From positions 5,213,703 to 5,277,702 of the forward strand of contig NZ_CP014870.1 in assembly GCF_001661075.1 (NCBI RefSeq): 64,000 bases of DNA, written 5' to 3'. Source of the stretch: Pseudomonas silesiensis. GTDB lineage: Bacteria; Pseudomonadota; Gammaproteobacteria; Pseudomonadales; Pseudomonadaceae. Positions 50,625 through 59,706 of the stretch are shown here, in pieces (positions within the stretch are counted from its first letter, which is position 1; every line of letters begins with the position of its first letter). The notes beneath the pieces are model-generated. The model saw only the letters and a list, made by a program, of their open reading frames with translations, was not told where the DNA came from and made no database searches. The translations under genes and the position numbers were made by a program.

Positions 50625-52055
50625 TCAAAGATTCAAACGTTGGCGTAATTCCTGAACATAATTATGCCAATCATTCAACACCCCTCGCTGAAAGGATGTA
50701 GCAGTAGCGCTCAATTGGGCTGCGGCTTCTACGAAAGTTTCCAGGGTATTGGGCGCCCCCCACTCGGGGGCTGACAGACGTTTCTGACAGAATATTCTCC
50801 ACCGCTGTTGCTCTTCGGAACTCAACGTATCGGGGAAGTTACGTGCGCGATAACGAAACAATAATTCTGGCAAGCGTTCATCATCGAAAGGCCACTGTGC
50901 TTGTGCCAATTGTGCCGGGTCCGACGCCCGGACTTGCTCACAAAGACGCCGATCGCGATCACCGATAAAACCATCGTATAACTGTTGCTCGGGATCCTGG
51001 CTCGGCGTGAATTCCTCGCTGGCATAAATGGCCTGAACTTTATCTCGCCAGACTGATTGTGCGTCACTGAGTCGCAGCGCGCGCGCCTGGTAGAGCGCCA
51101 TGTCCAGTCCCAGGCGTTGCTGATCTTCGGGACGCAGCACCGACAGCGGCGCCACCACGGGACATTTATTGATGTGGATGAGCTTGAGCGGTGCAGGCAA
51201 CTCGCCATCGGCCAGCTCATCGCGACGGGTATACAACCGCTGGCGCAAGGCTTCGGCACTCAGGTCAAGCAAGCCCTGGGGATCCATGTGCAAGTCGCAG
51301 ACAATCAGGGCGTTCTTGTTGCGCGGATGCCATGCCAGGGGCAGCACCACCCCGACATAGTTGCGCGCGGCCGAAAAGCGTCCGGAGATATGTACGATCG
51401 GCTGCAACAGTCGAATCTGATCCATCACCTTCTGTTTACCGCGCAATTGAAACAGCCAGTCGTATAACTTCGGCTGCTTCTCGCGGATCAGCCGCGCAAG
51501 GGCGATCGTGGCGCGAACGTCCGACAGCGCTTCATGGGCATGGCCGTGATCGATTCCGTTGGCGGCGCTCAGGCGCTCCAGCTTGAGCGTCACCCGGCCC
51601 TCGTCGTCCGTCGGCCAAACGAGGCCATCGGGGCGCAAGGCGTAAGCCGCACGCACCACATCGATCAGGTCCCAGCGGCTGTTGCCGCCTTGCCACTCAC
51701 GCGCGTAGGGGTCGAAAAAATTGCGGTACAAGCTGTAACGGGTCATCTCGTCGTCGAAACGCAAGGTGTTGTAGCCGGCCCCGCAGGTGCCGGGCGCAGC
51801 CAGCTGGGCGTGCACCCGGGTCATGAAATCGGCTTCGCTCAAGCCCTGCCCGGCCAGTTGGCTCGGCGTGATCCCGGTGATCGCGCAGGCGGCGGGGTGA
51901 GGCAGGATGTCATCACTGGGCTGACAGTAAAGATTGACTGGCTCGTCTATTTCATTGAGTTCAAAGTCAGTGCGAATGCCCGCCACTTGCAGCGGACGGT
52001 CGCAACGGGGGTTGATGCCAGTGGTTTCATAGTCGTACCAGAAGATGGAGGTCAC
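50625..52055 (-). CDS. sbcB: Exodeoxyribonuclease I
   Basis: A 476-residue ExoI (E. coli 475). It degrades single-stranded DNA 3' to 5' and acts in recombination and mismatch repair. The DEDDh catalytic residues are in FWYDYETTG (D, E), the second acidic residue near LRFDDEMTR, and GHAHEALSDVRAT (H, D). The start is GTG at 52055, giving the family N-terminus and with AGGA eight bases upstream; the longer frame to 52130 adds a non-homologous tail. Divergent from the RDD gene at 52241. Confidence 0.95.
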   Translation of the reverse strand: MTSIFWYDYETTGINPRCDRPLQVAGIRTDFELNEIDEPVNLYCQPSDDILPHPAACAITGITPSQLAGQGLSEADFMTRVHAQLAAPGTCGAGYNTLRFDDEMTRYSLYRNFFDPYAREWQGGNSRWDLIDVVRAAYALRPDGLVWPTDDEGRVTLKLERLSAANGIDHGHAHEALSDVRATIALARLIREKQPKLYDWLFQLRGKQKVMDQIRLLQPIVHISGRFSAARNYVGVVLPLAWHPRNKNALIVCDLHMDPQGLLDLSAEALRQRLYTRRDELADGELPAPLKLIHINKCPVVAPLSVLRPEDQQRLGLDMALYQARALRLSDAQSVWRDKVQAIYASEEFTPSQDPEQQLYDGFIGDRDRRLCEQVRASDPAQLAQAQWPFDDERLPELLFRYRARNFPDTLSSEEQQRWRIFCQKRLSAPEWGAPNTLETFVEAAAQLSATATSFQRGVLNDWHNYVQELRQRLNL

Positions 52056-52240
52056 GGGCTGTTCCTGAACTGAAGATCGGCGAAGTCCAGGCGTTCGCAT
52101 CCCGCCCGGCCCCATCATCTTGCCATTCAATCACCTCGGCTGCTTAATCGTGCCATACATAGTTATGTCGTATTCCCCCGGGAGGCTGCTAGCATCACAC
52201 GGACAGAGACTCCCGATCAGGCCACATCATCAGGTTGCCC

Positions 52241-52966
52241 ATGCTCGAGACCACAGCACGGCCACGGAACGCGACGCTGTCCCCGCCACTGGATACGCGG
52301 TACCCGATCGAAACGCCGGAAGGCATCGACTTGCCAGTGCGCCCGGCCGGGTTGATGGTGCGGGCGCTGGCGTTCTCCATCGACCTTGGCCTGCGCGGAC
52401 TGATCCTTGGCCTTCTGTTTATGGTCCTGGCATTTCTCGGCAAGCTCGGCGCCGGTCTTGGCTCGATCCTGCTGTTCGTGGTGAGCTGGTGGTACATGGT
52501 GCTGTTCGAGGTGCTCAATCAGGGCCGCTCGCCAGGCAAGCAGTGGATGGGGCTGCGGGTGGTCCATGACGATGGCACGTCCGTCGGCTGGTCTGCTTCG
52601 TTGCTGCGTAACCTGCTGCGAGTTGTCGACATGTTGCCGTTTGGCTATTTCCTGGGGGCCATCAGTTGCCTGCAGCATCCCAACTTCAAGCGTCTCGGCG
52701 ACCTGGCCGCCGGCACGCTGGTGATCTACCGCGAACAACCGCTCTCCCGCCCCCAGTTACCCGCCGCCGAGCCGCGGCGCCCGGCTTTTGCCCTGGCGCT
52801 GGCCGAGCAACGCGCCATCCTCGGGTTTGCCGAACGCCAGGGTGAACTCTCCGAGGCGCGGGTGGCTGAACTGGCGGCCATTCTCGCGCAACCCTTGCAG
52901 CTTTCAGCGCCTCAGGCGGTCGCCGAGCTCAACGGGATTGCCCGCGGCTTATTGGGCCCCGCATGA
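52241..52966 (+). CDS. RDD-family membrane protein, first gene of MoxR operon
   Basis: A 241-residue RDD protein. After an N-terminal soluble segment (PLDTRYPIETPEGIDLPVRP), RALAFSIDLGLRGLILGLLF starts the first helix (Arg/Asp signature), with further helices near 65-85 and 110-135; GRSPGKQWMGLRVVHDDG is the second RDD signature. The 70-residue C-terminal tail is soluble and helical. It overlaps the following SpoIIM-like gene by four bases. Start ATG 52241 chosen over a TTG two codons earlier. Role unknown; it opens a six-gene operon. Confidence 0.85.
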   Translation: MLETTARPRNATLSPPLDTRYPIETPEGIDLPVRPAGLMVRALAFSIDLGLRGLILGLLFMVLAFLGKLGAGLGSILLFVVSWWYMVLFEVLNQGRSPGKQWMGLRVVHDDGTSVGWSASLLRNLLRVVDMLPFGYFLGAISCLQHPNFKRLGDLAAGTLVIYREQPLSRPQLPAAEPRRPAFALALAEQRAILGFAERQGELSEARVAELAAILAQPLQLSAPQAVAELNGIARGLLGPA

Positions 52967-53940
52967 AGCAAAGTCTTTTCGAGAGTCGCCACAAGGCCGA
53001 ATGGGCGCAGTTTTCCCTCCTGCTTGAAAGACTGGAACGAAACAGAGAAGCCTCGCGTGCCGCCAGTTTCCCCGGTGATTATCGACGTCTTTGTCATCAC
53101 CTGGCCTTGGCCCGGGAGCGCGGTTACAGCAGCTTCCTGATCGACTCATTACAGCAACATGTCCTGCGCGGGCACCAACAGCTTTATCGGCATCGCAGCC
53201 GACCGGGTGCCGGGGCATTGAGTTTCATCCTCGCGGACTTCCCCCGACTGGTGCGAGAACAGTGGCGCTTCGTGCTCGCGGCCGGCCTGATGTTTTTTGG
53301 CAGCCTGATCGGCATCGCCCTGCTGGTGATGCTGTTTCCGGACCTGGTCTACAACCTGATCCCGGCCGAGCAGGTCAGCGAAATGCAGAGCATGTACGAC
53401 CCCAACGCCGGTCACCTGGGGCGCTCGGCGGAACGGGCGGCCAGTGAAGACTGGGTCATGTTCGGCTACTACATCATGCACAACATCGGCATTGCCTTTC
53501 AGACCTTCGCCAGCGGCCTGCTGTTTGGCCTGGGCAGTGCGTTTTACCTGTTCTACAACGGCTTGATGATTGGCGCGGTGGCCGGACACCTGACGCAAAT
53601 CGGCTACGGCCAGACCTTCTGGTCGTTCGTGATCGGCCATGGTGCCTTCGAACTCAGTGCCATTGCCCTGGCGGGTGCCGCCGGCCTGCAACTGGGCTGG
53701 GCATTGATCGCGCCGGGGCGCCTGCGGCGCGCCGAGGCCTTGCGATTGGCGGCGCGTAAAAGTGTGCTGCTGATTTGTGGAGTGATGGTGTTTCTGCTGA
53801 TTGCAGCGTTTATCGAAGCCTATTGGTCGTCAATGACCGGGGTCGCGCCGATGACCAAATACCTGGTCGGCGCAGCGCTCTGGTTACTGGTGGCGGTGTA
53901 CCTGCTGTTTGCCGGACGGACCCGCCATGCGCCTGAGTGA
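52963..53940 (+). CDS. SpoIIM-like (DUF95) membrane protein
   Basis: A 325-residue integral membrane protein of the stage II sporulation M family. A soluble N-terminus (about 1-95, starting ESRHKAEWAQFSLLLERLE) is followed by about six helices: 105-128, 160-185 (MFGYYIMHNIGIAFQTFASG), 190-210, 220-245 (FWSFVIGHGAFELSAIALAG), 265-285 and 300-318. The HGAFELSAI segment is the family hallmark. Pseudomonas does not sporulate, so the role differs from engulfment and is unknown. Overlaps its neighbours on both sides by 4 and 14 bases. Confidence 0.85.
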   Translation: MKQSLFESRHKAEWAQFSLLLERLERNREASRAASFPGDYRRLCHHLALARERGYSSFLIDSLQQHVLRGHQQLYRHRSRPGAGALSFILADFPRLVREQWRFVLAAGLMFFGSLIGIALLVMLFPDLVYNLIPAEQVSEMQSMYDPNAGHLGRSAERAASEDWVMFGYYIMHNIGIAFQTFASGLLFGLGSAFYLFYNGLMIGAVAGHLTQIGYGQTFWSFVIGHGAFELSAIALAGAAGLQLGWALIAPGRLRRAEALRLAARKSVLLICGVMVFLLIAAFIEAYWSSMTGVAPMTKYLVGAALWLLVAVYLLFAGRTRHAPE

Positions 53941-55447
53941 CGCCTGTGTGGCGATTCGCCCGCGCCTCGGTTGGGAAGCCATGGACATGGGCGTTCTGCT
54001 GAGTCAGCGCCACCGACGCCTGCTGATGACCAGTTGGGCCATCGTGACCCTGCCGGTCTTCGCCCTGCTCAGCCTGCTGCTATGGGATTCACCCTCCCTC
54101 GCCGTGTTTATTTTCTGGTGGCTGAAGCCGGCGTTCGAACGCCTGCCGCTGTTCATTCTGTCCAAAGCCATGTTCGGCGAAACACCGACTTTGCAACAGG
54201 CGTTGCGCCAATGGCCGCGCTTGCTCAAGCCGCAACTGCTGGCCAGCCTGACCTGGCGACGCCTGAGCCTGAGCCGCAGCTTCCTGATGCCGGTCATGCA
54301 ACTTGAAGGCCTCGAGGGCGACGCGCGGGAGCAGCGTTTGCAGGTGCTGTTGCAGCGTAACGCCGGCGCCGCGAAATGGCTGACGATCATTGGCGTGCAT
54401 CTGGAGGTCGCCCTGTGGATCGGCCTGATGGTGCTGTTCTACCTGTTCCTGCCGCAACAGGTAGAACTCGACTGGAGCTGGCAGACACTGATCACCGCTG
54501 CCACACAGGACTGGCGCTGGCTGGAACACCTGACCAACCTGTTTTATGCACTGGTGCTGGTGATCTGGGAACCGGTCTATGTGGCTTGCGGTTTCAGCCT
54601 TTACCTGAACCGGCGCACCGTGCTGGAGGCCTGGGATATCGAGCTGGCGTTCCGCCGCCTGCGCCAACGCCTGGGCAGCGCCGCGGTCACGCTGATATTG
54701 GCGGCGTTCCTGCTGGCACCCACCGCACAAACTGCCTGGGCTGCGGAGCCGATGGCCTCACCCGAAAGCCCGCGTCTGCTGGATCAGTCCCTGACCAGCC
54801 AGGCGTCCCGGGACAGCATCAAGGCGATCCTCGACCAGCCTCCATTCAAGAACAGGGAAACGGTCACGCGCTATCGTTTTGGCGAAGACACGCCGAGTGC
54901 CGTCGACCCGCGCAGTGACCGAACACCTGAATGGCTGATGGCGTTGCTCAACCTGTCGACCTGGCTGATCGAGGGGGTGTTGTGGGGGATAGTGATCGGC
55001 GCCATCGGTTTTTTGATCTGGCATTACCGGGACTGGCTGCAGGCCTTCGTCAGTCGTCGCCCGCGGTTGAACAGTAAAGTCCCGCGACCGTTACCACGGC
55101 AGGCGTTCGGCCTGGACCTCGACTGCGAAACCCTGCCCGCCGACATCGCCGCCAGCGCCGAACGCCTCTGGCAGACCCATCCTCGCGAAGCCCTAGGCTT
55201 GCTCTATCGCGCCCTGCTCAGCCACTTGCTGCATGACTTCAACATGGCATTGAAACCCGCGGACACCGAAGGTCAGGTACTGGAACGCGTCGAACGATTG
55301 CAACGGCCCGAGTTGCTGGCCTTCAGTAAAAAGCTGACCGGACACTGGCAAAACATGGCCTACGGACATCGCCTGCCCCCCGCGCCCGCGCAACAGGAAC
55401 TCTGTGACGGCTGGCGTGCCTTGTTCGACCAGGGAGCGGTCCATTGA
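53927..55447 (+). CDS. DUF4129-domain membrane protein
   Basis: A 506-residue protein. The N-terminal half has about five hydrophobic segments (about 35-60, 65-80, 155-175, 195-220, 255-280). A further one is at about 345-370 (LIEGVLWGIVIGAIGFLIWHY). The C-terminal cytoplasmic domain (about 395-490) has HPREALGLLYRALLSHL and is the DUF4129 unit. That domain is found mostly in MoxR/DUF58 operons and fused to transglutaminase-like proteins. ATG at 53927 overlaps the SpoIIM-like gene by 14 bases. Function unknown. Confidence 0.82.
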   Translation: MRLSDACVAIRPRLGWEAMDMGVLLSQRHRRLLMTSWAIVTLPVFALLSLLLWDSPSLAVFIFWWLKPAFERLPLFILSKAMFGETPTLQQALRQWPRLLKPQLLASLTWRRLSLSRSFLMPVMQLEGLEGDAREQRLQVLLQRNAGAAKWLTIIGVHLEVALWIGLMVLFYLFLPQQVELDWSWQTLITAATQDWRWLEHLTNLFYALVLVIWEPVYVACGFSLYLNRRTVLEAWDIELAFRRLRQRLGSAAVTLILAAFLLAPTAQTAWAAEPMASPESPRLLDQSLTSQASRDSIKAILDQPPFKNRETVTRYRFGEDTPSAVDPRSDRTPEWLMALLNLSTWLIEGVLWGIVIGAIGFLIWHYRDWLQAFVSRRPRLNSKVPRPLPRQAFGLDLDCETLPADIAASAERLWQTHPREALGLLYRALLSHLLHDFNMALKPADTEGQVLERVERLQRPELLAFSKKLTGHWQNMAYGHRLPPAPAQQELCDGWRALFDQGAVH

Positions 55448-56607
55448 ACCGACGGTACTGGCTTGCGGCCAGTGTCTTGTGCGCGGTGCTACTGGGCGCG
55501 CTGAGTATTTATCTGTACCTGAAGGCGACGCCCTATCAGCAAGTGATCGACCACGGCCCCGCGCCCGAGGTCCAGGCCAATCCTTATCTGGCCGCCGAGC
55601 ATTTCCTGCGCAAACAGGGCCTGACCGTCAGGCATGCCAACGGTCTGGACGTCTTGCCGTCGATCGAGCCGCGCCAGCACAGCCTGTTATTGCTCGGTGA
55701 CCGGTCCGACATGACACCACGCCAGATCGATCAAGTGATGAACTGGACCCGGGCCGGCGGGCGCCTGTTGTTCGTGGCCCAGTCGCTGTGGGATGAAAAA
55801 CTAGGTCAGAGCAGTGACCTGCTGCTCGACCGGGTCCAGCTGCATCAGTTGCTGAGCAAAAATCTCAAGGGCCCGCCACCCGACAGCAGGGCCGACTCCT
55901 ACCCCAGGTTGACCAAGCTGTACCTGGAAGACGAAGACGCGCCAGCCTACGCCGGCTTCGACACCGCTTTCCATCTGGAAGACCCGAATAACCTCGCCCA
56001 GGCCTGGGCCAACAGCGCCAAGGCCACCCACATGATGCAGCTCAATCACGGGCTCGGTTCGATCATCGTGGTCACCGACGCCGACCTGTGGAAAACCCCG
56101 GCCATCGACCAGTACGACAACGCCTGGCTGCTCTGGTACCTGACTGCGGATACCCACGTGACCCTGTTGTTCAACACCGATCACGACAACCTGCTGACCT
56201 TGCTGCTGCGCTATTTCCCCCAGGCGCTGGTAGCGCTGATCGCCCTGATCGGTGCCTGGTTCTGGCAGGTTGGCGTGCGCCATGGCCCGGCGCTGGAACC
56301 GGTGCCGCGAGCCCGTCGGCAACTCCAGGAACACCTGCGCGCCAGTGCCGATTTCCTGTTTCGGCGCAAGGGTCGGGACCACCTGCTGCACGTCTTGCAA
56401 CTGGACATACTGCGCCGCGTGCGGCGCCGTCATCCCGGCTTTGAACAACTCGGCATCGCCGAACAATGGCAGGTGCTCGCACGCCTGACCGGCCAATCCA
56501 CACGCGCTATCAGCCAGGTCATGAGCCCGCGACCGAAGCAACGGCTTTCCAGCGGTGAATTCAGCCGTCAGGTCGCCCACCTGCAAATCTTGAGGAACAC
56601 CTTATGA
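55444..56607 (+). CDS. DUF4350-domain membrane protein
   Basis: A 387-residue protein with one N-terminal helix (about 7-27), a periplasmic alpha/beta domain (about 45-250, with LLLLGDRSDMTPRQIDQVMNW and GRLLFVAQS) of the DUF4350/GATase-like fold, a second helix (about 258-278, FPQALVALIALIGAWFW) and a cytoplasmic Arg-rich tail. The start appears to be TTG at 55444, overlapping the previous TGA (TTGA) with AGGGAG ahead of it. The stop overlaps the moxR ATG. The function is unknown. Confidence 0.8.
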   Translation: MNRRYWLAASVLCAVLLGALSIYLYLKATPYQQVIDHGPAPEVQANPYLAAEHFLRKQGLTVRHANGLDVLPSIEPRQHSLLLLGDRSDMTPRQIDQVMNWTRAGGRLLFVAQSLWDEKLGQSSDLLLDRVQLHQLLSKNLKGPPPDSRADSYPRLTKLYLEDEDAPAYAGFDTAFHLEDPNNLAQAWANSAKATHMMQLNHGLGSIIVVTDADLWKTPAIDQYDNAWLLWYLTADTHVTLLFNTDHDNLLTLLLRYFPQALVALIALIGAWFWQVGVRHGPALEPVPRARRQLQEHLRASADFLFRRKGRDHLLHVLQLDILRRVRRRHPGFEQLGIAEQWQVLARLTGQSTRAISQVMSPRPKQRLSSGEFSRQVAHLQILRNTL

Positions 56608-57605
56608 GTGAACAGATCGAGCCCGACGCCGCCAGCCACGCCGACCAGCAACGCCAGCGCGCCAGTCGGTTGGCCCAGGCGGTGCGTAGCGAATTGCAGA
56701 AGGCGGTCATCGGCCAGGACGCGGTGATCGACGACGTGCTCACGGCCCTGATCGCCGGTGGCCATGTGCTGCTCGAAGGCGTGCCGGGGCTGGGCAAGAC
56801 CTTGCTGGTGCGGGCGCTGGCGCGCTGCTTCGGCGGCGAGTTCGCGCGCATCCAGTTCACCCCGGACCTGATGCCCAGCGATGTCACCGGGCACGCGGTG
56901 TACGACTTGCAGACCGAGCAATTCAAGCTGCGCAAGGGGCCGTTGTTCACCAACCTGTTGCTCGCCGACGAAATCAACCGCGCCCCGGCGAAAACCCAGG
57001 CGGCGCTGCTCGAAGCCATGCAGGAACGGCAAGTGACCCTCGAAGGCCGCGCCCTGCCCATCGCGCAGCCATTCATGGTGCTTGCCACGCAAAACCCCAT
57101 CGAACAGGAAGGCACCTACCCGCTGCCGGAAGCCGAACTGGATCGCTTCATGCTCAAGGTCCGCATGGATTACCCCGACGACGACCAGGAGCTGGACATG
57201 GTCCGCCAGGTCACTCGCTCGACCCGGGCCGACATGCTCGACGTGCAACCGCTGCGCACGGTGTTGCAGGCCAAGGACGTGCTGGCCTTGCAACGCATCG
57301 CCAGCGATTTGCCGCTGGACAATCAGGTCCTCGACTATGCCGTGCGCCTGGCCCGCACCACTCGCAACTGGCCCGGGCTGACCCTCGGCGCCGGGCCCCG
57401 GGCCTCGATCGCGCTGGTGCGTTGCGCCCGGGCGCGGGCGCTGTTGCGCGGTGGCGCGTTCGTGATTCCGGATGACATCAAAGGGTGTGCCCTGGCGGTG
57501 TTGCGTCATCGCGTACGCCTGGCGCCGGAGCTGGACATCGAAGGGCTCGAGGTCGATCACGTGCTGCGCCAACTGCTCGATCAAGTGCCGGCGCCGCGGT
57601 TGTGA
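56604..57605 (+). CDS. MoxR-family AAA+ ATPase
   Basis: A 333-residue MoxR ATPase. Walker A GVPGLGKT is near residues 57-64, Walker B LLLADEINRAPAKTQAAL near 120, sensor 1 region LATQNPIEQEGTYPLPEAE near 155-173, and the helical lid follows to the C-terminus. MoxR proteins are thought to act as chaperone-like remodelers of vWA-domain partners, which matches the DUF58 gene downstream. It overlaps the preceding gene in ATGA and the following gene in GTGA. The substrate is not known in this type of operon. Confidence 0.93.
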   Translation: MSEQIEPDAASHADQQRQRASRLAQAVRSELQKAVIGQDAVIDDVLTALIAGGHVLLEGVPGLGKTLLVRALARCFGGEFARIQFTPDLMPSDVTGHAVYDLQTEQFKLRKGPLFTNLLLADEINRAPAKTQAALLEAMQERQVTLEGRALPIAQPFMVLATQNPIEQEGTYPLPEAELDRFMLKVRMDYPDDDQELDMVRQVTRSTRADMLDVQPLRTVLQAKDVLALQRIASDLPLDNQVLDYAVRLARTTRNWPGLTLGAGPRASIALVRCARARALLRGGAFVIPDDIKGCALAVLRHRVRLAPELDIEGLEVDHVLRQLLDQVPAPRL

Positions 57606-58933
57606 AACCCTCGCGCCTGCTGTTGATCTGGCTCGCGATCCTGCTGGCCATCGGCATCGTCCTGGGCTCTTTGCGGGCGCTGGGCATCGCGATGCCAGCG
57701 AGTCTGCCGTCGATCACCTGGGGTTTACTCCTGGCACTGCCGGTCCTGGCGATAATCGACGCCATTCGTCTCAAACGCCTGCCCTCGCCCCGCCTGCAAC
57801 GACAAATGCCCGGCAGCCTGGCGCTGGGCCGTTGGGGCGATGTGCGATTGGAGGTCGAGCATGACTTTGCCCAACCCCTGACCATTCAGCTGTTCGATCA
57901 CGTCCCCCACGGCCTGAGCTTCGACAACCTGCCCCTGTCGGTCGAACTGCAACCCGGCCTGCGCAGCCAGATCGGCTACCGCCTGCGCCCGCTCAAGCGC
58001 GGCCACTTCAGTTTCGAACGCTGCGAAATCAACCTCCCCAGCCCCTTTGGCCTGTGGTCCGACAAACGCCTGCTAAGCGTGACCGACGCGACCCGCGTCT
58101 ACCCCGACTTCGCCCGCCTCTACGGCGGCCAGCTGCTGGCGGTGGACAACTGGCTCAGCCAACTCGGCGTACGCCAGCGCCAGCGACGCGGCCTGGGCCT
58201 GGAGTTTCATCAGCTACGAGAATTTCGCGAAGGCGACAGCCTGCGCCAGATCGACTGGAAAGCCACCGCCCGCCAGCGCACGCCGATTGCGCGGGAGTAT
58301 CAGGACGAGCGAGACCAGCAGATCGTTTTCATGCTCGATTGCGGCCGGCGCATGCGCAGTCAGGACGATGAACTGTCGCACTTCGACCATGCGCTCAATG
58401 CCTGCCTGTTGCTGAGCTATGTCGCCCTGCGCCAGGGGGATGCCGTAGGCCTTTGCACCTTTGCGCACGAGCAGCCGCGCTACCTCGCCCCGGTCAAAGG
58501 CGCCGGGCAACTCAACCGACTGCTCAACCAGGTCTATGACCTCGACAGCGGCCAACGCAGTGCCGACTACCAGGGCGCTGCAACCGAGCTCTTGGCTCGA
58601 CAGAAACGCCGGGCACTGGTGGTCGTGGTCACCAATCTGCGGGACGAAGACGACGAAGAACTGCTCACCGCCGTCAAACGCCTGGGCAAGTCACATCGGG
58701 TGTTGGTCGCCAGCCTGCGCGAAGACGTGCTCGACCGCTTGCGTCAGGCACCGGTGCAGACCTTTGCCGAGGCGCTGAACTATTGCGGCACCGTGGACTT
58801 CCTCAATGCCCGGGCCGAACTTCATGAGCGATTGAACGCCCATGGGGTGCCGGTGGTGGATACGACTGCTGTCGGGTTAGGTGCCGCATTGGTGACGCGC
58901 TATCTGGAATGGAAGAAGGCCGGGGTGTTTTAG
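57602..58933 (+). CDS. DUF58 (vWA-like) protein
   Basis: A 443-residue protein. Two N-terminal membrane helices (about 5-25 and 35-55) are followed by a beta-rich region and the DUF58 signature RQIDWKATARQRTPIAREY, then a vWA-like fold to the C-terminus. The position of the metal-site DxSxS reads D246-C-G-R-R, so the usual MIDAS serines are absent. The start is GTG at 57602 (GTGA overlap with moxR). It is the last gene of the six-gene operon and the presumed MoxR partner. Confidence 0.88.
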   Translation: MKPSRLLLIWLAILLAIGIVLGSLRALGIAMPASLPSITWGLLLALPVLAIIDAIRLKRLPSPRLQRQMPGSLALGRWGDVRLEVEHDFAQPLTIQLFDHVPHGLSFDNLPLSVELQPGLRSQIGYRLRPLKRGHFSFERCEINLPSPFGLWSDKRLLSVTDATRVYPDFARLYGGQLLAVDNWLSQLGVRQRQRRGLGLEFHQLREFREGDSLRQIDWKATARQRTPIAREYQDERDQQIVFMLDCGRRMRSQDDELSHFDHALNACLLLSYVALRQGDAVGLCTFAHEQPRYLAPVKGAGQLNRLLNQVYDLDSGQRSADYQGAATELLARQKRRALVVVVTNLRDEDDEELLTAVKRLGKSHRVLVASLREDVLDRLRQAPVQTFAEALNYCGTVDFLNARAELHERLNAHGVPVVDTTAVGLGAALVTRYLEWKKAGVF

Positions 58934-59110: not shown

Positions 59111-59470
59111 TCAGGCCGAAGCCGGCAACGGTTGAAAACTGAAGTATTGCTTCAACGCATCGACCAATTGCCCATACTCCGGCGGTGCCCGTTGCAGGCA
59201 AAACCCGGCGTCGTAATGGTGGGGGGTGGTGTCTTCATGGCACCACAGGCAGCAGGCATTGAGGTCGATCACCTGGTGGCAGCCACCGGCCATAGGGATT
59301 TTCAGGCGCAAATCGAAATCGGCACCGATCATCATCGGCAACTGGCTGATGAGCATCAGCCCGTCTTCGGAGACGTTACCCAGAAAGCCAATGGGTTTGT
59401 CGGTAACGCTGTTGAACACTCGAAGAAAATACGGCAGTTGATGCCGCTCGATACGGCGGACGGTGAACAT
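59111..59470 (-). CDS. PilZ-domain protein
   Basis: A 119-residue single PilZ domain. The cyclic di-GMP-binding R-x3-R motif is at residues 5-9 (RRIER) and the N-x-S-x2-G motif in GNVSEDG is intact, so binding is expected. Cysteines in CCLWCHED and a HEDTTPHHYDAGFCL segment form the second half. I used the ATG at 59470, the first Met before the motif; an in-frame GTG at 59509 would add 13 residues and neither has a good ribosome binding site. The partner it controls is unknown. Confidence 0.87.
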   Translation of the reverse strand: MFTVRRIERHQLPYFLRVFNSVTDKPIGFLGNVSEDGLMLISQLPMMIGADFDLRLKIPMAGGCHQVIDLNACCLWCHEDTTPHHYDAGFCLQRAPPEYGQLVDALKQYFSFQPLPASA

Positions 59471-59706
59471 GTTGAATTCGCTACGCAAGGCCCTTAAGCA
59501 GAGCCGCACTAATGCTTCGGAACGGGCCTCCCACTATAAAGAAAGACACGCTCTCCCTGATCCTGGTGCGACAGTCTTTGAACCGCTGCCGCTTACTCCT
59601 GCCGATCACAGGTGTTTCCCCGGTTTAGAGGCACGGCTCTAAAACCGATCCATTCGACTATAGCTCACCACCGCCGCTGATCCAGTCTTCAATATAGCGA
59701 CCGCCA

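What the first reader, a model, noticed from the sequence alone, without database searches (positions are those of the whole stretch)
52241..58933. Six-gene RDD / SpoIIM / DUF4129 / DUF4350 / MoxR / DUF58 operon of unknown function
All six genes overlap by 4-14 bases, with GTG and TTG starts placed inside the stop codons. Five of six products are membrane proteins and the sixth is an AAA+ remodeler. The group looks like a membrane machine: MoxR with its DUF58 vWA-like partner on the cytoplasmic face, DUF4350 exposing a periplasmic domain, and the RDD and SpoIIM-like proteins as channel or scaffold. Pseudomonas does not sporulate, so the SpoIIM-like member must serve another envelope function. 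I know of no assigned role for this complete set.
Basis: partly seen in the sequence, partly recalled or inferred. Interest (0 to 1): 0.75.

Follow-up and report, generated by a model that had tools for sequence, protein, structure and literature searches.

The report
Known anti-rival defence operon in Pseudomonas
The six overlapping genes are the Pseudomonas counterpart of a published gene cluster (arc2) that helps a bacterium survive toxins injected by rival bacteria, so the set already has a role although how it works is not known, and in some relatives the same operon is also a landing site for mobile DNA.

Summary
In detail: six + strand genes at 52241-58933 (RDD, SpoIIM, DUF4129, DUF4350, MoxR, DUF58) overlap by 4, 14, 4, 4 and 4 bases. 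The claim that the set has no assigned role is wrong: its counterpart in P. aeruginosa is arc2 (PA4317-PA4323), a Gac/Rsm-controlled cluster protecting against type VI attack and partly specific to a predicted pore-former, ColA (PMC8926400). Published primers match the gene order and the MoxR/DUF58 ATGA junction. The window lacks arc2A. The mechanism is not given in what I read; my best guess is a MoxR-DUF58 motor with four membrane proteins that disarms or clears membrane-inserted toxin. DUF58 has no canonical MIDAS; SpoIIM gave a good model without a clear solved relative. In relatives the DUF4350/moxR junction is an insertion hotspot: 8 of 71 named loci and, in a possibly overlapping sample, 15 of 141 pairs. 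Five of 23 inserts have a GInt-like four-gene block, some carry defence genes, and 17 of 23 right ends supply moxR with a new in-frame start. I found no report of this.

The parts
52241..52966 (+). RDD-family membrane protein, 241 aa (counterpart of PA4318 by order)
   Evidence: ORF, PF06271 E 1.6e-18, hydropathy
52963..53940 (+). SpoIIM-family membrane protein, 325 aa (counterpart of PA4319 by order; the PA4320 upstream-flank primer encodes FGFYIMN, here FGYYIMH)
   Evidence: PF01944 E 1.7e-37; primer; P0114 named P. aeruginosa 64% identical; model m0817f36c4738 pLDDT 86.7
53927..55447 (+). polytopic protein with C-terminal DUF4129, 506 aa (counterpart of PA4320)
   Evidence: PF13559 E 1e-7; only DUF4129 match in the genome; primer peptide LTDAS vs LSDAC
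55444..56607 (+). DUF4350 protein, 387 aa, TTG start (counterpart of PA4321 by order)
   Evidence: PF14258 E 4.8e-24
56604..57605 (+). MoxR AAA+ ATPase, 333 aa (counterpart of PA4322; primer peptide TQNPIE is present)
   Evidence: PF07726 E 1.3e-64; closest solved chain 2r44_A
57602..58933 (+). DUF58 protein with VWA-like domain, 443 aa, GTG start (counterpart of PA4323)
   Evidence: PF01882 E 8.1e-30; MIDAS DxSxS replaced by DxGxx in 15 of 15 aligned; primer peptides MKPS and GVL*
56604..56607 (+). ATGA overlap of DUF4350 stop and moxR start; the site where relatives carry inserts (empty here)
52157..52168 (+). ACATAgtTATGT inverted repeat in the upstream region; ACATAnnTATGT in 49 of 71 loci; one exact TACATAGTTATGTC in the genome
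   Evidence: function not tested
52187..52195 (+). TGCTAGCAT, extended -10-like element, in 66 of 71 loci
   Evidence: the sigma-70 consensus scan itself found no promoter
50625..52055 (-). flank: exodeoxyribonuclease I (sbcB); start codon not settled
   Evidence: NF008746 E 6.6e-207
59111..59509 (-). flank: PilZ-domain protein
   Evidence: PF07238 E 2.3e-6

Best explanation
This is the arc2 operon: an interbacterial-antagonism defence cluster whose six core products act together at the inner membrane. SHOWN in P. aeruginosa by others: arc2 is under Gac/Rsm control, protects against a rival's type VI attack, acts defensively, and part of the protection is specific to ColA, a predicted inner-membrane pore-former. 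SHOWN here: the window carries the same gene set and order without arc2A, and the close packing is conserved. INFERRED: RDD, SpoIIM, DUF4129 and DUF4350 proteins form an inner-membrane platform; the membrane-anchored DUF58 protein couples it to a MoxR ring, as NorD couples NorQ to its membrane target; ATP-driven remodelling disarms or clears membrane-inserted toxin or damaged complexes.
For: Role: PMC8926400 sections 5-7 read in full: six Arc2 genes hit in the first screen, four of them beyond threefold for ColA; deleting a second Arc2 gene added nothing, so one pathway; survival of the Arc2-inactive strain was significantly restored when the attacker lacked colA. Counterpart: primer peptides TQNPIE, MKPS/GVL*, FGFYIMN and LTDAS correspond to the matching window proteins, and the PA4322/PA4323 junction is also ATGA; SpoIIM 64% identical to a protein named P. 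aeruginosa. Unit: of the 20 genomes listed without DUF4350 (43 lack it) and the 20 listed without DUF58 (45 lack it), 19 are the same. Motor: MoxR with AAA_3 and lid domains; NorQ/NorD precedent, passages of PMC9976466.
Against: No defence test exists for this species that I know of. RsmA-type A.GGA motifs are not enriched in the leader: 20 of 72 against a shuffle mean of 15.7, maximum 25, so Gac/Rsm control is not supported by motif here, although three CsrA-family genes are present. Direct interaction of the six products is unshown. DUF58 lacks the canonical MIDAS that NorD needs for its target, so the analogy may fail at substrate binding. One Arc1 gene also met the ColA cut-off and Arc2 gives only 'a degree' of specific protection. 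SpoIIM has no informative fold match and the DUF4129 model is poor. Inserts split the operon in some relatives, so an unbroken six-gene unit is not kept everywhere.
Confidence: 0.6

Rival explanations
1. Ion or proton-motive-force rescue: RDD and SpoIIM form or gate a transporter that restores the membrane potential after pore formation, and MoxR-DUF58 only assembles or activates it.
For: Protection is partly specific to a predicted pore-former; the set is rich in membrane proteins. Ion-transport activity reported for some RDD proteins is recalled, not read.
Against: No transporter fold found for SpoIIM (inconclusive); no solved relative of RDD by sequence; salt stress showed no phenotype in P. 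aeruginosa. An RDD paper surfaced by my search (SppI; title and start of abstract seen in the listing only) concerns inhibition of a membrane protease.
Confidence: 0.15
2. A general envelope assembly or secretion machine (as predicted for archaeal DUF4350-MoxR-vWA loci) whose loss only secondarily sensitises cells to toxins.
For: Archaeal DUF4350, MoxR-type ATPase and vWA genes co-occur and were predicted to be a secretion or remodelling complex; SpoIIM relatives sit beside vWA and AAA+ genes in several bacteria (PMC5898192 sections 3.2 and 3.3). Mycobacterial neighbours listed in PMC8191103.
Against: Strains lacking Arc1-3 function were wild type under heat, H2O2, salt and detergent, and the paper reports very low basal and strongly inducible expression. 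DUF4350 is missing from 43 of 199 congeneric genomes, so it is dispensable.
Confidence: 0.2
3. Maturation chaperone: MoxR-DUF58 inserts a cofactor into, or assembles, one of the membrane subunits, which is the real effector of defence.
For: A MoxR/VWA pair acts this way in NorQ/NorD and the arc2 paper itself cites such functions.
Against: Pfam and NCBIfam show no enzyme or metal-binding family in the four other membrane proteins.
Confidence: 0.2

Closest known systems
arc2A-G (PA4317-PA4323) of P. aeruginosa PAO1, Ting et al. 2022 eLife (PMC8926400)
   Same: Same gene order by primer peptides and the same ATGA coupling of moxR and DUF58. In a genus that I take, but did not show, to be that of P. 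aeruginosa, the six genes lie between sbcB and pyk as here (L139-L143).
   Different: The window has no arc2A: about 110-190 nt separate sbcB from RDD, whereas L139 and L140 of that genus have extra frames there and L141 does not.
Bat-type MoxR-DUF58-BatA/B/D operons, two in the same genome (L168, L169)
   Same: MoxR and DUF58 pair as the likely motor, with membrane proteins downstream.
   Different: They carry VWA/TPR and BatD-like frames; SpoIIM and DUF4129 occur in the genome only in the arc2 operon (Bat names read by eye and recalled).
Mycobacterial cluster Rv3691-Rv3695
   Same: M. chelonae genes named DUF4350, MoxR, DUF58, SpoIIM and RDD are listed with the equivalents Rv3691-Rv3695 (PMC8191103, one passage); Rv3694c and Rv3695 both came down with Rv0954, described as a cell-division protein (PMC8093794, one passage).
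   Different: Distant lineage; not compared here by sequence; no defence role known to me.
Archaeal DUF4350-MoxR-vWA loci
   Same: Motor pair plus DUF4350, predicted membrane remodelling or secretion.
   Different: Ig-like and S-layer partners are described there, not RDD and SpoIIM.
NorQ/NorD (PMC9976466)
   Same: MoxR ring plus VWA protein remodelling a membrane complex.
   Different: NorD uses a MIDAS; the DUF58 here lacks the DxSxS part.

Membership tests
arc2 antagonism resistance cluster | Gene content and order RDD-SpoIIM-DUF4129-DUF4350-MoxR-DUF58 | tested here: met
   primer peptides tie SpoIIM/PA4320 and MoxR/PA4323; RDD and DUF4350 by order only
arc2 antagonism resistance cluster | Seventh gene arc2A between sbcB and RDD | tested here: not met
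   too little space upstream here and close sbcB in the 71 named loci; extra frames in L139 and L140, none in L141. Whether arc2A is needed is unknown.
arc2 antagonism resistance cluster | Gac/Rsm control | tested here: inconclusive
   CsrA-family genes present; leader motif not enriched
arc2 antagonism resistance cluster | Defence phenotype against type VI attack and ColA | not testable with these tools
   read for P. aeruginosa only
MoxR AAA+ ATPase | AAA_3 core with lid domain, Walker A GVPGLGKT and Walker B LLADE | tested here: met
   (PF07726, PF17863); sequence; motif names recalled
VWA domain with MIDAS | DxSxS metal site | tested here: not met
   DxGxx in 15 of 15 aligned DUF58
Bat operon | BatA/BatB/BatD genes | tested here: not met
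   none among the six genes; such frames in the two paralogous loci (by eye)
SpoIIM of the sporulation DMP complex | Works with SpoIID and SpoIIP | not tested
   neither is in the operon; the genome was not searched for them
GInt islands (inserts in relatives) | ginABCD: three integrases plus a fourth gene, site-specific insertion | tested here: inconclusive
   four-frame block of constant sizes in 5 of 23 inserts; Phage_integrase in the first gene of three tested, below cut-off in the third gene of one of two, none in the second gene of two; one fixed site; direct imperfect repeats not tested

The most novel reading that the evidence does not exclude
Arc2 is an ATP-driven inner-membrane machine that pulls out or disarms pore-forming toxins, built from a MIDAS-less DUF58 anchor, a MoxR ring and a SpoIIM fold without a clear solved relative, and spread far beyond pseudomonads; and its moxR start codon is the attachment site of a family of GInt-like islands that bring further defence genes and hand moxR a new start, so one locus gathers both anti-rival and anti-phage immunity.
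Probability: 0.2. Interest if true: 0.8.

Novelty: new member of a known kind. Interest (0 to 1): 0.42.

Why it matters
It removes a 'function unknown' label: the operon belongs to a published bacterial innate-defence pathway, and the open question is its mechanism. Two results make that question more testable: the DUF58 partner cannot use a classical MIDAS, and in some relatives inserts separate the four upstream genes from moxR and DUF58 while MoxR stays open through a new start (17 of 17 with the start motif) and the DUF58 matches show no stops. The insertion hotspot, if new, is a place to look for defence genes in Pseudomonas genomes.

Tried and rejected
Shared docking domains: I asked whether the cytosolic parts of RDD, SpoIIM, DUF4129 and DUF4350 (and a DUF4381-like neighbour of a Bat operon) are homologous; hhalign probabilities were 6.4% at most in 10 of 10 comparisons, so dropped.

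Rsm leader site: not enriched. Operator-like repeat as a regulon: 8 matches in the genome with up to two mismatches, one of them exact, against 11 for the reversed control.

Anti-phage system: PADLOC gave no strong match to the six proteins (MoxR best E 1.7e-5).

Finding P. aeruginosa itself by its primer: no exact match in 25 genomes of one genus, 8 of 25 with one mismatch.

Corrected while checking: I had taken the MoxR/DUF58 gaps of five loci for BLAST artefacts; four are real spacers of 205-398 nt and in L003 MoxR is in pieces.

Literature limits: nine answered searches of a library of openly licensed PMC papers; 'no report found' for the hotspot rests and on no 'MoxR' in the GInt paper's main text.
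Full report
OBSERVATION. Pfam places each family above its cut-off. NCBIfam gave no match for five of the six; MoxR matched 19 models, each far below its cut-off. sbcB lies upstream on the - strand; a PilZ protein, a small TPR-like protein (both -) and pyk (+) lie downstream (pyk read by eye).

CONSERVATION. A scan of species genomes with the DUF4350 protein gave 71 loci, all titled Pseudomonas, 63-92% identical. In 57 of 71 the six genes are in order with every gap under 200 nt; 8 carry large inserts; 4 have spacers of 205-398 nt between MoxR and DUF58; in L003 MoxR is in pieces; L027 ends at its contig edge. DUF4350 passes its cut-off in 156 of 199 genomes of the genus and 80 of 397 of the phylum (125 of 397 at E 0.001). 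Of 20 regions of about 16 kb that I chose from hits, 15 have all six families in order (L139-L147, L150-L153, L155, L156), L154 shows four, L148 and L149 only DUF4350 and MoxR, L157 MoxR-DUF58-SpoIIM-RDD, and L158, a second weak DUF4350 hit of one genome, none. In L148 the frame after MoxR looks like a shortened DUF58 and its MoxR has a changed Walker B stretch (read by eye). Named SpoIIM homologues among the 120 listed in each of two searches include Pseudomonas, Stutzerimonas, Xanthomonas, Stenotrophomonas and Thiothrix.

ASSIGNED ROLE. PMC8926400 (abstract, sections 5-7 in full and search passages read) names PA4317-PA4323 arc2A-G. It reports a Tn-seq hit under type VI attack by B. [quoted passage not shown] It says the genes co-occur in many Xanthomonadaceae and Pseudomonadaceae and that none of the proteins had been characterised. 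Its primers let me test the correspondence: the PA4323 upstream primer encodes TQNPIE (in MoxR here), the deletion join reads MKPS...GVL* (window DUF58 starts MKPS and ends GVF*), the PA4320 upstream primer encodes FGFYIMN (SpoIIM here: FGYYIMH), and PA4320 starts near LTDAS (here LSDAC). A SpoIIM named P. aeruginosa is 64% identical over the full length.

DIFFERENCES. The space between sbcB and RDD in the window is too small for arc2A. In a genus I take to be that of P. aeruginosa (no genome there matched the PAO1 primer exactly), L139 and L140 have extra frames there and L141 does not. The upstream region of the window's group has a conserved TGCTAGCAT (66 of 71) and ACATAnnTATGT (49 of 71), not found in nine loci L139-L147. 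RsmA-type A.GGA is not enriched (20 of 72; shuffles 15.7 on average, maximum 25). Three CsrA-family genes exist in the genome.

PARTS AND MECHANISM. The genome has three strong MoxR genes and five weak matches; the other two strong ones sit in Bat-like operons. SpoIIM and DUF4129 occur once each. DUF58: D246, G248 and M251 are invariant in 15 of 15 aligned, so the first MIDAS motif DxSxS is lost. In NorQ/NorD the MIDAS is needed for active target but not for ring binding (passages of PMC9976466), so the DUF58 here may still plug the ring but must hold its target otherwise; this is inference. SpoIIM: AlphaFold pLDDT 86.7, pTM 0.73, an N-terminal helical bundle followed by a helical membrane part; no PDB match at E 0.001 or better and no convincing second look. 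My reading is a MoxR-DUF58 motor acting on an inner-membrane platform to disarm or clear inserted toxin. The role is the better-supported half; the mechanism is a proposal.

INSERTION HOTSPOT IN RELATIVES. In 8 of 71 named loci the operon is interrupted (L002, L011, L018, L028, L042, L047, L049, L072). For L011 and L072 MoxR was not in the fetched stretch; DUF58 was found elsewhere in the same genomes, for L011 perhaps on another contig. To count in another way I compared DUF4350 and DUF58 places in 199 congeneric genomes, which may overlap the 71. The listings are truncated, so 149 and 150 places were used, one per genome; a second listed G556 copy was dropped. 143 genomes have both; 2 have them on different contigs or strands; of the 141 others 126 lie 1,450-1,785 nt apart and 15 lie 2,942-56,653 nt apart, that is inserts of about 1.4-55 kb. 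I fetched all 15 (the middle of the largest was not fetched). In each the insert begins at or within a few codons of the DUF4350 end and stops just before MoxR. The 23 left ends all differ from each other; 16 begin TGATC at the DUF4350 stop. Of 23 different right ends (25 listed, two duplicates of L002 and L049) 17 carry ATGGA[AC][GA]A[TG]AAA just before MoxR, against 0 of 63 loci without a large insert. In 17 of 17 this ATG is in frame with MoxR and open through the match, giving it a new N-terminus (mostly MEDK or MDDK); the other 6 right ends lack it. Five inserts (L011, L189, L191, L194, L196) have a block of four frames of 380-394, 556-560, 627-629 and 142 codons, the layout reported for GInts, genomic islands with three integrases and a fourth gene (PMC5385486: start of abstract and passages seen); the other 18 were not typed fully. 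Pfam finds Phage_integrase in the first gene of three tested (L011, L189, L196), just below cut-off in the third gene of L011 but not in that of L189, and nothing in the second gene of either. Cargo, from a choice of frames: Fic in two, Zeta-toxin-like, flavohaemoglobin-like with nitronate monooxygenase, NmrA-like, RND efflux, YadA-like adhesin, one without a match; Abi_C in L011; by PADLOC, SoFic, Avs2, AbiEii, AbiD, a NERD-helicase and an ATPase with partial Ppl/AriA matches, and no match for four of ten. The GInt paper's passages report insertion at 5' ends of some genes and an outward promoter in one element; its main text has no 'MoxR'. The window copy has no insert.

VERDICT. An ordinary, well-placed member of a known defence operon, misjudged as unassigned; its mechanism is open, and the hotspot in relatives is the part most likely to be new.

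Noticed in passing
window 56604-56607 (empty site); inserts in L002, L011, L018, L028, L042, L047, L049, L072 and L178-L196: The DUF4350/moxR junction is a site-specific insertion hotspot: 8 of 71 named loci and 15 of 141 pairs of a possibly overlapping sample, inserts about 1.4-55 kb, five of 23 with a GInt-like four-gene block, some with defence or toxin-antitoxin-like cargo, 17 of 23 right ends with a new in-frame moxR start.
   Followed up: yes
L006, L051, L058, L059 (and L003): Small spacers of 205-398 nt between MoxR and DUF58 in four loci; in L003 MoxR is in three pieces with about 300 nt between them.
   Followed up: no
L148, L149 (one Pseudomonadaceae genus): Between sbcB and PilZ only DUF4350 and MoxR were recognised; in L148 MoxR has an altered Walker B and is followed by a shortened DUF58-like frame: a reduced version of the operon at the same place.
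   Followed up: partly
window 52157-52168 and 52187-52195: Conserved inverted repeat and extended -10-like element upstream of the operon in the window's group, not found in L139-L147.
   Followed up: partly
L168 and L169 (same genome): Two paralogous Bat-type MoxR-DUF58 operons.
   Followed up: partly
L139 3183-5072: Two similar-looking adjacent frames in the arc2A position, which may be a duplication of arc2A (by eye).
   Followed up: no
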